Source: an uncultured Eubacteriales bacterium (lineage in GTDB: Bacteria > Bacillota > Clostridia > Lachnospirales > Lachnospiraceae). Taken from it: 35,464 nt of DNA. Every line of letters starts with the position of its first letter. Within the stretch, counting starts at the first letter, position 1. The translations under genes were made by a program, and so were the position numbers. The DNA lies in contig OMZA01000017.1 in NCBI GenBank assembly GCA_900315425.1, forward strand, positions 1-35,464, written 5' to 3'. Positions 15,162 to 17,740 of the stretch are shown piece by piece. The notes under the pieces are model-generated. The model saw nothing but the letters and a program-made list of their open reading frames with translations. It did no database searches and was not told where the DNA came from.

Positions 15162-17711
15162 ATGGTAATAGGAATATTAGCTCATGTTGACGCAGGTAAG
15201 ACAACTCTTTCGGAAACTATTCTTCATAAATGTAAAGTTATTAGCAATTTAGGAAGAGTAGATAAGGGAGATTCTTATCTAGACAACAATGAAATAGAGA
15301 AAAAACGTGGTATTACAATTTTTTCGGGTCAGGCAAATGTAACCTGGAAGGATACAGATATCACCATAATTGACACTCCGGGACATGTGGACTTTTCTTC
15401 TGAAATGGAGAGAAGTCTTGGTGTAATTGATGCAGCTGTGCTAGTTATCAGTGGAACTGAGGGAGTGCAAAGCCATACTGAAACATTGTGGAAACTCCTA
15501 GAACTCTATGGAGTTCCCACTTTTGTCTTTTTTAACAAAATGGACAGACAGGGTGCAGATATAGACAGTCTGATGCAGCAAATAAAAACAAAGCTGAGTC
15601 CGGACTGTATTTATTTTTCTAAGGATAATTCTGAAGAAATCTATGAAGCAGTGGCAGCAACTAGTGAAGCCGTTATGGAAAAATATTTAGAAAAAGGAAA
15701 TGTGGATGTAAAGGATATAACACAGGCTATATCTGAAAGAAAAATATTTCCTTGCCACAAAGGAAGTGCTCTTAAAGAAGAAGGTATAGAAGATTTTTTG
15801 GATACTTTAACTACCTATATGAATAAGAAGATTTATGCAAAAGATTTTTCTGCCAGGGTTTTTAAAATTACAAGAGATTCCAAGGATATGCGCCTTACCC
15901 ATGTTAAAATCACAGGTGGCTCATTAAAAGTGAAAGAAATGATTGGAGAGGAAAAGGTTAATGAGATTCGCATTTATTCAGGAGAAAAATACGAATCAGT
16001 TCCTAGTGTAAGTGCCGGATGCATATGTACATTGGTAGGACTAAACGAAACCTTTGCCGGACAGGGATTAGGAGCAGAAGAATCGGTTATACAACCAGTG
16101 CTTGAACCGGTTCTTAGCTACAGAGTTAGAATTAATTCCGGTGAAGACCCGGCAGTTCTTCTTTTGAAACTAAGAATTTTGGAAGAAGAGAATCCAACTC
16201 TTCATATTAATTGGATAGAAGAATTAAAAGAAATATACGTCCAGATTATGGGAGAAATTCAACTTCAAATACTTAAAAACGTAGTGGCAAATCGATTTGG
16301 GGCAGATATTGATTTTGATAAGGGTAATGTAGTCTATAAAGAGACTATTAAGACTGAAGTGGAAGGTGTAGGTCATTTTGAACCATTAAGACACTATGCC
16401 GAGGCTCATGTTTTATTAACACCTTTAGAGAGAGGTGCCGGCATTGTGGTGGAGAATGAGTGCAGCACGGATATTTTGGCAAAGAATTATCAGGCTACAT
16501 GCATTTCCTGCTTAAGTAAAAGAAAACACAGAGGTGTGCTAATTGGTGGGGAACTGACTGATGTAAAAATTACTTTAATAGGTGGAAAATCCCATCCAAA
16601 GCATACTATGGGTGGTGATTTTAGAGAAGCCTGTAACAGAGCTGTTAGACAGGGACTTATGATGACGGAAAGCATTTTATTAGAACCGTATTATGAGTTT
16701 GAATTAACGGTGCCAACTGCCATGACAGGAAGAGCTATGACGGATTTGGACAAAATGTATGCAAAGATTTCACCTCCAGAGATGGATGGAGATTTTGTCA
16801 CCATCAAAGGGATGGGGCCGGTGGATACCATGAGAGATTATCAAAAGGATGTTATGGCTTTTACCAGTGGAAAAGGGAAAATAGTATGTAACTATGGTGG
16901 ATACCATGAATGCCACAATCAGGATGAAATTATAGAGAAGAAAAACTATGATCCTGAAACGGATACAAAAAATCCTACCGGGTCAGTATTTTGTAAATCA
17001 GGTGCAGGTTATTATGTACCTTATGATGAAGTCAGAGATTACATGCACATTGAGATTCTAGAAGACGGAAGTAGTAATTCGCTTCAAAATAAGGTTTACA
17101 CTGTTACTAGTAATTATCATGATGAGTGGATTGGAACAAGTGAAGTGGATAATATACTTTCTTTGGCTACAGGTGCAAATAAGAAAGCAAGCGGAAAGTC
17201 TAATCCGTTTAAAAAGACCAAGGTGATTAGAGATTATTCTGATAATTCTTCATCAAAACCTAAGAAAACAGAAAACCGTGAGAATTATCTATTAGTTGAT
17301 GGTTATAATGTAATATTTGCCTGGGATGATTTAAAAGAATTGGCCAGAGACAATATTGATGCTGCCAGAGACAGACTTTTGGATGTTCTAAGCAATTATC
17401 AGGGTATTACCAATGAAAAGGTTATGGCAATTTTTGATGCATATAGGGTAAAGAATCATGCCACGGAAGTTATAGATTACCATAATATTAAAGTGGTATT
17501 TACAAAAGAGGCAGAAACTGCAGATCAGTTTATAGAAAAGTTTGCCCATGTAAATGGCAGGAAACATAATGTAACTGTTGTTACATCGGATGGTCTTGAA
17601 CAGATTATTATTGTAGGTCAGGGATGTAATCTGATTTCTTCAAGGGAATTTAAACTTATTGTAAAACAGAAAAACGATGAGCTTATGGAGAATTTTAATG
17701 CTAAATCATAA
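15162..17711 (+). CDS. TetM-like translation GTPase fused to a YacP/Rae1-like NYN endoribonuclease domain
   Basis: An 849-residue two-part protein. Residues 1-630 are an EF-G-like GTPase of the TetM/ribosomal-protection group: G1 AHVDAGKTT (7-15), G2 RGITI, G3 DTPGHVDF, G4 FNKMD, then the later domains ending VRDYMHIE (about 627). A Lys/Ser-rich linker (631-703) joins a NYN domain (704-845) beginning NYLLVDGYNVIF and carrying acidic residues D713, D759, D788 and D810 expected at the active site; this is the YacP/Rae1 family, whose B. subtilis member cuts mRNA in the ribosomal A site. The TetM drug-displacing loop (Ser-Pro-Val) is replaced by P479-K480-H481, so tetracycline resistance should not be assumed. 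Normal TetM proteins are about 640 residues. Start at 15162 gives the family N-terminus; the RBS is weak. Follows tyrS. Confidence 0.9.
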   Translation: MVIGILAHVDAGKTTLSETILHKCKVISNLGRVDKGDSYLDNNEIEKKRGITIFSGQANVTWKDTDITIIDTPGHVDFSSEMERSLGVIDAAVLVISGTEGVQSHTETLWKLLELYGVPTFVFFNKMDRQGADIDSLMQQIKTKLSPDCIYFSKDNSEEIYEAVAATSEAVMEKYLEKGNVDVKDITQAISERKIFPCHKGSALKEEGIEDFLDTLTTYMNKKIYAKDFSARVFKITRDSKDMRLTHVKITGGSLKVKEMIGEEKVNEIRIYSGEKYESVPSVSAGCICTLVGLNETFAGQGLGAEESVIQPVLEPVLSYRVRINSGEDPAVLLLKLRILEEENPTLHINWIEELKEIYVQIMGEIQLQILKNVVANRFGADIDFDKGNVVYKETIKTEVEGVGHFEPLRHYAEAHVLLTPLERGAGIVVENECSTDILAKNYQATCISCLSKRKHRGVLIGGELTDVKITLIGGKSHPKHTMGGDFREACNRAVRQGLMMTESILLEPYYEFELTVPTAMTGRAMTDLDKMYAKISPPEMDGDFVTIKGMGPVDTMRDYQKDVMAFTSGKGKIVCNYGGYHECHNQDEIIEKKNYDPETDTKNPTGSVFCKSGAGYYVPYDEVRDYMHIEILEDGSSNSLQNKVYTVTSNYHDEWIGTSEVDNILSLATGANKKASGKSNPFKKTKVIRDYSDNSSSKPKKTENRENYLLVDGYNVIFAWDDLKELARDNIDAARDRLLDVLSNYQGITNEKVMAIFDAYRVKNHATEVIDYHNIKVVFTKEAETADQFIEKFAHVNGRKHNVTVVTSDGLEQIIIVGQGCNLISSREFKLIVKQKNDELMENFNAKS

Positions 17712-17740
17712 ATGGAGGCTGGATTATGTCCAGCCTCCAT
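17712..17740. terminator. Palindromic hairpin shared by convergent genes
   Basis: A 12-bp perfect stem (17712-17723 with 17729-17740, TTATG loop) begins right after the GTPase stop codon. Its right half is the last coding stretch of the opposing reductase gene. No strong T-run follows on either side, but position and stability suggest bidirectional 3' end formation. Confidence 0.65.

What the first reader, a model, noticed from the sequence alone, without database searches (positions are those of the whole stretch)
15162..17711. Translation GTPase fused to an A-site-type mRNA endonuclease domain
The sequence shows a full TetM/EF-G-like GTPase (1-630), a basic linker, and a YacP/Rae1-type NYN domain with four acidic residues (D713, D759, D788, D810) in the positions expected for catalysis. 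TetM-like factors enter the A site and contact the decoding centre; free-standing Rae1 of B. subtilis cleaves mRNA in that site. Joining them suggests a self-delivering ribosome-rescue or mRNA-quality-control factor that could clear stalled ribosomes or cut messages in the A site using GTPase-driven entry. I know of no functional description of such a fusion. Its place after tyrS and next to a YmfI-like EF-P reductase fits a stalling-related role.
Basis: partly seen in the sequence, partly recalled or inferred. Interest (0 to 1): 0.85.

Follow-up and report, generated by a model that had tools for sequence, protein, structure and literature searches.

The report
Translation GTPase carrying Rae1 mRNA nuclease
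Many gut clostridia carry one protein that joins a ribosome-binding GTPase to a nuclease known to cut messenger RNA inside the ribosome; such proteins have been labelled tetracycline resistance, but the evidence here points to a widespread mRNA-cutting factor whose ribosome docking has passed to the GTPase part.

Summary
In detail: 15162-17711 (+) is one intact 849-aa gene with an EF-G/Tet-type GTPase (to about 631), a flexible linker (634-702) and a Rae1/YacP NYN domain (706-849) whose nearest solved fold is B. subtilis Rae1. In 134 fused homologues D713, N716, D759, D788 and D810 never vary. The architecture is in print: Atkinson 2015 noted it in ten Clostridiales as a possible resistance device. 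Added here: (1) it is near-core in the window's family (123 of 150 genera in one frame); (2) the fusion looks single in origin, inside a GTPase subfamily apart from TetM, with Lys480 where TetM has Pro509; (3) in 12 of 12 fused genomes checked no rae1 lies beside rlmB, its usual place; (4) catalytic residues are kept while residues typical of free Rae1 (Arg120, a C-terminal Glu/Arg motif) are relaxed or lost. Best reading: a ribosome-targeted mRNA endonuclease whose docking passed to the GTPase. Cleavage and its timing are inferred. The tyrS/YmfI neighbourhood argument fails.

The parts
15162..17711 (+). CDS of the GTPase-NYN fusion, 849 aa, ATG start, stop included
   Evidence: 133 further fused homologues in single frames
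15168..15824 (+). G domain (residues 3-221): P-loop AHVDAGKTT, DTPGHVD, NKMD
   Evidence: PF00009 E 2.2e-54; D10 G12 K13 T15 D71 T72 P73 G74 D77 K126 D128 134 of 134, N125 128 of 134
15846..16058 (+). domain II (residues 229-299), below Pfam cut-off
   Evidence: PF22042 22.6 bits against 27
16104..16316 (+). domain III (residues 315-385)
   Evidence: PF14492
16323..16664 (+). domain IV (residues 388-501) with subfamily signatures GHFEPLRHYAE and H-x-KHT-x-GGDFR
   Evidence: PF03764; signatures shared, with exceptions, by fused and close unfused rows and absent from TetM-type rows
16599..16601 (+). codon of Lys480, aligned with tetracycline-site Pro509 of TetM
   Evidence: K in 130 of 134 fused and 26 of 27 close unfused; alignment with TetM; role of Pro509 from PMC8161019 passages
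16677..16922 (+). domain V (residues 506-587)
   Evidence: PF00679
16911..17054 (+). C-terminal segment of the GTPase (residues 584-631), with conserved Cys584 and Cys611; close unfused relatives end about here
   Evidence: BLAST matches of close unfused relatives end at query residue 619-632, apart from the shortened L091
17061..17267 (+). flexible linker (residues 634-702) with one predicted helix 659-673
   Evidence: pLDDT under 50; 634-705 region 55-122 residues long, median 73, in 134 fused proteins
17277..17708 (+). Rae1/YacP NYN nuclease domain (residues 706-849), lacking the last ~25 residues of free Rae1
   Evidence: PF05991 profile 1-138 of 166; Foldseek best match 5mq9 Rae1 E 1e-11; tail 41 residues after S809 against 66-69 in most free Rae1 rows
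17298..17300 (+). codon of catalytic-position D713
   Evidence: 134 of 134 fused, 52 of 52 free Rae1
17436..17438 (+). codon of catalytic-position D759
   Evidence: 134 of 134 fused, 52 of 52 free Rae1
17523..17525 (+). codon of catalytic-position D788
   Evidence: 134 of 134 fused, 52 of 52 free Rae1
17589..17591 (+). codon of catalytic-position D810
   Evidence: 134 of 134 fused, 52 of 52 free Rae1

Best explanation
The gene encodes a Rae1-type mRNA endonuclease, the only one in this assembly, covalently attached to a translational GTPase that now does the ribosome docking. The GTPase, an EF-G-shaped relative of TetM with its own domain-IV tip, binds ribosomes whose A site is empty or stalled. 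GTP hydrolysis releases it, and the tethered NYN domain, on a linker of about 70 residues, cuts the mRNA in or next to the A site, sending the truncated complex to ribosome rescue and mRNA decay. Shown here: domain make-up, intact GTPase motifs and nuclease active site, a tree consistent with one fusion, near-core distribution, no rae1 at its usual locus in fused genomes checked, loss of free-Rae1 residues. Inferred: ribosome binding, cleavage of mRNA, the A site as the place of cutting, and the order GTPase first, cut second.
For: Rae1 fold and active site: PF05991 2.6e-46, 5mq9/5mq8 as the only PDB folds with E under 0.001, D/N/D/D/D in 134 of 134. Live GTPase motifs. In 12 of 12 fused genomes checked the rlmB surroundings hold no rae1, in 8 of them with sigH nearby, whereas rae1 lies beside rlmB and/or sigH in 16 of 18 stand-alone loci. 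Free-Rae1 residues relaxed in fusions: Arg120 52 of 52 free against 67 of 134 fused; Arg168 48 of 52 against 22 of 134; 51 of 134 fused have under 8 residues past position 150. B. subtilis R166P, in that C-terminal motif, was recovered among mutations read as loss of Rae1 function (PMC6613710 passages; alignment). Unfused GTPases of the subfamily sit in genomes that have a YacP: 26 of 27 in the order sample. The same domain-IV signature occurs in fused and unfused members. Near-core presence: 123 of 150 genera. Rae1 of B. subtilis is described as acting in the A site (passages in PMC6613710, PMC10100781, PMC12320835).
Against: No experiment on any member was found in the searches run. Domain IV of an EF-G-like factor and Rae1 would both occupy the A site, so they cannot act there at once; sequential action is assumed. 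Some fused genomes count a second YacP (G021, G050, G171, G197; a stand-alone frame was seen for G171 and G197), so the fusion does not always replace free Rae1. In the order sample 108 of 134 non-fused genomes with YacP have no such GTPase, so free Rae1 does not generally need it. The co-occurrence test is modest (Fisher p 0.018, no correction for kinship). 15 of 150 family genera lack both domains, so the function is dispensable.
Confidence: 0.6

Rival explanations
1. Order reversed: the NYN domain cuts first, as free Rae1 does, and the GTPase then clears the cut complex, by moving or splitting the ribosome like EF-G or a Tet protein.
For: GTPase is EF-G-shaped (Foldseek E 2e-54 to ribosome-bound EF-G); TetM appears to need GTP hydrolysis for its own release (PMC8161019 passages); the unfused GTPase occurs with free Rae1, compatible with consecutive steps.
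Against: Does not by itself explain relaxation of Arg120 and of the C-terminal motif in the fused nuclease, since that nuclease would still have to dock alone.
Confidence: 0.18
2. The nuclease matures or trims rRNA or tRNA on the ribosome and the GTPase is an assembly or quality-control factor, not an mRNA-decay factor.
For: Atkinson 2015, citing the NYN-domain paper, gives rRNA/tRNA maturation as the proposed role of this domain; free rae1 often sits beside rlmB, a 23S methyltransferase gene.
Against: Passages read describe B. subtilis Rae1 as cutting mRNA in a translation-dependent way; the active site is of that family and fold.
Confidence: 0.12
3. A tetracycline-resistance protein with an added RNase, as Atkinson 2015 suggested and as some NCBI labels imply.
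For: tet_protect is the best NCBIfam model (429 bits); annotated as TetM/TetW/TetO/TetS family in Agathobacter rectalis; TetM is its best match in the PDB sequence search.
Against: Far below NCBI's cut-off of 775, which a true TetM-type protein of the same family passes (L098 851 bits; but three Tet-like rows also fall below: L101 703, L100 513, L090 453); Pro509 replaced by Lys480 in 130 of 134 (of six Tet-like rows only L098 and L099 have Pro there); near-core distribution; TetM-type proteins of 31% identity occur as separate genes in some of the same genomes.
Confidence: 0.07
4. A stress or anti-phage effector that shuts translation down by cutting mRNA on ribosomes when triggered.
For: A nuclease joined to a ribosome-type NTPase resembles, in outline, ribosome-directed killers (recalled, no call).
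Against: No PADLOC model matched at E 0.01; no recurrent neighbours, hence no sign of an island or antitoxin; near-core distribution.
Confidence: 0.03

Closest known systems
Clostridial Tet proteins with a YacP-like NYN domain (Atkinson 2015, PMC4342817)
   Same: Same architecture; very probably the same family, reported from ten Clostridiales species.
   Different: Treated there as Tet resistance proteins that gained a domain; here placed on their own GTPase branch, near-core in one family, with rae1 missing from its usual locus. Its list of species (Additional file 8) was not seen.
Rae1/YacP of Bacillus subtilis (PDB 5mq8, 5mq9)
   Same: NYN fold (TM-score about 0.8 by query length) and the acidic active site.
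   Different: Free protein, co-transcribed with yacO, the RlmB homologue; has the Arg120 equivalent and a C-terminal Arg that the window protein lacks.
TetM/TetO ribosomal protection proteins (NF012153, PDB 3j9y)
   Same: EF-G-like GTPase; TetM-type proteins of the same family are about 29-31% identical.
   Different: Domain-IV tip differs (Lys480 against Pro509); below NCBI cut-off; NYN domain.
Unfused GTPases of the same subfamily (27 rows: L066-L089, L091, L123, L124)
   Same: Same domain-IV signatures; 39-48% identical over the GTPase part.
   Different: End near residue 631; of the 27 genomes assigned as unfused in the order sample, 26 also have a YacP.
SmrB / MutS2-SMR (ribosome-collision nucleases; recalled, with titles seen only in reference lists)
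   Same: A nuclease domain brought to stalled ribosomes, in MutS2 by a fused ATPase (recalled).
   Different: Unrelated domains; whether collisions matter here is unknown.

Membership tests
Rae1/YacP (PF05991) | Score over the curated cut-off | tested here: met
   158 bits against 24.6
Rae1/YacP (PF05991) | Acidic active site D, N, D, D, D | tested here: met
   134 of 134 fused and 52 of 52 free
Rae1/YacP (PF05991) | NYN fold of B. subtilis Rae1 | tested here: met
   Foldseek 5mq9 E 1e-11, TM 0.81-0.82, rmsd 1.7-1.9
Rae1/YacP (PF05991) | Arg120 and C-terminal Glu/Arg motif of free Rae1 (a feature found here, not a published criterion) | tested here: not met
   Window has Leu at 120 and no tail; so a variant, not a typical free Rae1
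Rae1/YacP (PF05991) | Translation-dependent mRNA cleavage | not testable with these tools
   Needs an experiment
Tet ribosomal protection proteins | NCBIfam NF012153 cut-off 775 bits | tested here: not met
   429 bits; L098 851 bits passes; Tet-like L101, L100 and L090 do not
Tet ribosomal protection proteins | Pro509 in the domain-IV loop at the tetracycline site | tested here: not met
   Lys480; K in 130 of 134
Tet ribosomal protection proteins | Confers tetracycline resistance | not testable with these tools
   Needs an MIC test
Elongation factor G (TIGR00484) | Cut-off 659.4 bits | tested here: not met
   316.7 bits
Translational GTPase superfamily, EF-G/Tet branch | GTPase motifs and domains G, III-V | tested here: met
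   domain II seen only below cut-off; fold like EF-G

The most novel reading that the evidence does not exclude
A GTP-clocked messenger-RNA endonuclease: the GTPase samples ribosomes with an empty A site, and only those that stay stalled through a GTPase cycle have their mRNA cut by the tethered Rae1 domain. In a large group of gut clostridia this is usually the only Rae1, so the choice of which stalled ribosomes lose their message would be made by a translation factor.
Probability: 0.3. Interest if true: 0.85.

Novelty: new variant of a known kind. Interest (0 to 1): 0.6.

Why it matters
Rae1 is one of few endonucleases described as cutting mRNA on the ribosome, and how it picks ribosomes is unclear. 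A lineage that welded it to a translation factor, has no rae1 left at the usual locus and let free-Rae1 residues decay points to the GTPase as the selector, and to which residues of free Rae1 may do that job; both can be tested directly. It also shows that at least some copies of a near-core gut-clostridial gene are annotated as tetracycline resistance, which, if common, would distort resistome counts.

Tried and rejected
Frameshift or joined-gene artefact: rejected, 134 fused proteins in single frames. Conserved operon with tyrS or ymfI: not found; L040 alone shares the window's upstream methyltransferase gene (59% identity). Phage origin: the hit in a record named Bacteriophage sp. (MT835514) lies among FeoB, RsmH/MraW, a glutamyl/glutaminyl-tRNA synthetase, a RelA/SpoT-domain protein and a sugar kinase, so that stretch looks like bacterial chromosome; the second such record (MT835563) was not examined. 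Replacement of EF-G: the assembly shows no EF-G over the cut-off, but ribosomal protein S12, usually encoded close by (recalled), is missing too, so an assembly gap is the simpler reading. Defence system: no PADLOC match. NYN tree: too poorly resolved to date the fusion (support 51); the GTPase tree was used, a quick search with SH-aLRT only. The promoter scan gave no more than shuffles (20 against 20.8) and the terminator scan 5 against 2.3. In the PDB search of the NYN part, TAL-effector repeat chains also scored E 1e-9 to 1e-5 but with no stretch passing on its own. Positions 101 and 150 first looked typical of free Rae1 and failed the 20-protein check. Papers: Leroy 2017 and Condon 2018 on Rae1, and Li 2013 on TetO, are not held, so whether Condon 2018 on Rae1 distribution mentions the fusion is unknown. 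Statements about print rest on the searches.

Biases to know: 26 of the 32 first free Rae1 proteins are top Pfam scorers, so 20 further ones, picked by hand from lower rows, were added. Most of the 134 fused ones are best matches to the window (83), are not checked for near-copies, and are no random sample; L053 is cut by a contig end, so at least one of the 51 missing tails is not real. Rows left out: five partial fused loci (L001, L014, L017, L023, L028) before the 51-row set, and EF-type rows L062-L065 before the tree. In the order sample four genomes with pieces at contig ends or short frames (G084, G159, G164, G174) were left unassigned, and sample classes were assigned by hand from the listings. 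The listings are cut, so weaker rows were not seen one by one.
Full report
What is there. The window holds one intact gene at 15162-17711 (+), 849 codons from ATG. Pfam gives GTP_EFTU 3-221, EFG_III 315-385, EFG_IV 388-501, EFG_C 506-587 and NYN_YacP 710-845, all over cut-off, and domain II at 229-299 under it. An AlphaFold2 model from a 48-row alignment (40 fused, 8 unfused) has mean pLDDT 85 and pTM 0.67; the only long stretch below 50 is 634-702. Foldseek places the whole model with ribosome-bound EF-G (E 2e-54). The NYN part modelled alone (pLDDT 89) matches B. subtilis Rae1 5mq9/5mq8 at TM about 0.8 and no other PDB entry with E under 0.001. Sequence search agrees: TetM first for the whole protein, 5mq8/5mq9 first for the NYN part (E 6e-24).

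Prior art. Atkinson 2015 (PMC4342817; [quoted passage not shown] So the architecture is known; no test of function was seen in those passages. The ten searches listed no later study of it in the held library; I saw listings only, apart from passages of the papers named in this report. Leroy 2017 and Condon 2018 could not be read.

Distribution. In the window's family, one genome per genus, 135 of 150 have NYN_YacP. In 9 it is a stand-alone frame of 174-260 aa; in 123 it lies in a frame of 516 aa or more together with a GTPase match, one of which (G375, 690 aa) matches the GTPase only to residue 392; in 3 (G285, G337, G368) contig ends or a stop leave the pair apart or unclear. The 15 genera without NYN_YacP have no GTPase of this subfamily either (best match E 1.9e-31 or weaker). 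In the order sample 210 of 246 have NYN_YacP; by hand I assign 74 genomes as fused, 27 as having an unfused close GTPase and 4 as unclear. In the phylum sample 155 of 299 have NYN_YacP and 21 have a GTPase match at E 1e-85 or better: 18 fused, 2 close unfused and 1 Tet-like, the last three all with a YacP.

One fusion, own GTPase branch. In a tree of 84 GTPases the 51 fused ones form one clade (SH-aLRT 99); two unfused proteins (L082, L083) are its sisters (93), 25 other unfused ones form the next group (92), and six Tet-like proteins are the outgroup (quick search, no bootstrap). Fused and close unfused proteins share domain-IV signatures that TetM-type proteins lack. Where TetM has Pro509, which sits in the tetracycline site and contacts C1054 (PMC8161019 passages), this subfamily has Lys480: 130 of 134 fused, 26 of 27 close unfused; of the six Tet-like rows only L098 and L099 have Pro. 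NCBI's Tet model scores 429 bits for the window, 408 and 421 for two unfused relatives and 851 for the TetM-type L098, against a cut-off of 775; Tet-like L101, L100 and L090 score 703, 513 and 453. By these tests it is not a Tet resistance protein.

The usual rae1 locus is empty. Stand-alone rae1 lies beside rlmB and/or sigH in 16 of 18 loci examined (exceptions L015, L092), in several as cysS-mrnC-rlmB-rae1-sigH. In 12 of 12 fused genomes chosen, the window's included, rlmB is found with no rae1 match within the 1.5 kb taken on each side; mrnC and cysS accompany it in 11 (neither was matched in L127) and sigH in 8. In L130, L132 and L133 rlmB and sigH lie a few tens of bases apart. In these genomes the nuclease is seen only as the tail of a translation factor (one NYN_YacP match each). 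Exceptions exist elsewhere: G021, G050, G171 and G197 have a fused gene and two YacP matches, and G282 has a second one at a contig end.

What selection kept and dropped. Across 134 fused proteins D713, N716, D759, D788 and D810 never vary, and the GTPase motifs almost never. By contrast Arg120 (L094 numbering) is present in 52 of 52 free Rae1 proteins but 67 of 134 fused; Glu165 in 49 of 52 against 34 of 134; Arg168 in 48 of 52 against 22 of 134; and 51 of 134 fused proteins, the window's included, end before or within 8 residues of position 150 (20 of the 52 were added as a lower-scoring check, and in them positions 101 and 150 proved variable). In B. subtilis the R166P change was recovered among mutations interpreted as loss of Rae1 function (PMC6613710 passages), and chain residue Arg165 of 5mq9 aligns with Arg168. 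My reading is that catalysis is kept while ribosome docking, which free Rae1 must do for itself, has passed to the GTPase. That these residues serve docking is inference.

The unfused pair. If the GTPase and Rae1 work together, genomes with the unfused GTPase should also have Rae1. In the order sample 26 of 27 do, against 108 of 141 other non-fused genomes (Fisher p 0.018); the one exception is a 77% complete assembly. In the family sample 5 of 9 genomes with stand-alone Rae1 have the unfused GTPase, one of them shortened, against 0 of 15 without (p 0.003). Neither test corrects for kinship, and 108 of 134 non-fused genomes with YacP lack this GTPase.

Mechanism. Passages read describe B. subtilis Rae1 as an A-site mRNA endonuclease, proposed to enter stalled ribosomes. 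Tet-type factors bind at the same site, with domain-IV loops reaching tetracycline. Both cannot sit there at once, so I favour sequential action on a tether of about 70 residues (55-122 in 134 fused proteins): the GTPase docks on ribosomes with an empty or stalled A site, GTP hydrolysis withdraws domain IV, and the NYN domain cuts. The reverse order is the main rival.

Context. The reductase does pass NCBI's YmfI model (251.8 against 238 bits), but it is convergent, a perfect 12-bp inverted repeat lies at the ends of the two genes (17712-17740), and within the flanks held tyrS recurs in none of 33 other fused loci and YmfI only as matches of about 30% identity in two. With flanks of up to 4 kb no neighbouring family recurs in more than 9 of 84 fused loci.

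Verdict. A real, widespread and under-described fusion, first noted in 2015. The evidence added here moves it from a resistance curiosity to a probable ribosome-directed mRNA nuclease with outsourced docking. Function remains untested.

Noticed in passing
window 16911-16913 and 16992-16994 (Cys584, Cys611): The GTPase subfamily carries conserved Cys584 (134 of 134 fused, 26 of 27 close unfused) and Cys611 (127 of 134, 24 of 27) before its C-terminal helix; role unknown, possibly metal or redox.
   Followed up: partly
whole assembly G000: No EF-G over the model cut-off and no ribosomal protein S12 found in the window's assembly; probably a gap at the str operon.
   Followed up: yes
L232 (MT835514.1, 9288-23792): A GenBank record named Bacteriophage sp. 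holds a full fused gene among bacterial housekeeping genes; the record looks mislabelled.
   Followed up: yes
L233 and L234: Full fused genes on large plasmid records of Agathobacter rectalis (252 kb, annotated TetM/TetW/TetO/TetS family) and Monoglobus pectinilyticus (518 kb, annotated translation factor GTPase family protein).
   Followed up: partly
plasmid hits H3-H20: Ligilactobacillus salivarius plasmid records carry a protein about 47% identical over residues 1-636 only, also annotated as Tet resistance; its domain-IV tip was not examined.
   Followed up: no
window protein residues 2-628: A phage protein family, phrog_6880 (translation elongation factor), scores 448 bits, more than NCBI's Tet model; its members were not looked at.
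   Followed up: no
window 17712-17740: Perfect 12-bp inverted repeat with a 5-base loop directly after the stop codon, overlapping the end of the convergent ymfI gene; not called as a terminator by the scan.
   Followed up: partly
genomes G021, G050, G171, G197: Fused gene and two NYN_YacP matches in the same genome, useful for asking whether two such nucleases share substrates.
   Followed up: no
genomes G285, G380, G375: G285: GTPase and NYN lie in separate frames on one contig; G380: the GTPase itself is split near residue 370; G375: a 690-aa frame joins NYN to a GTPase matched only to residue 392. Error, decay or variation.
   Followed up: no
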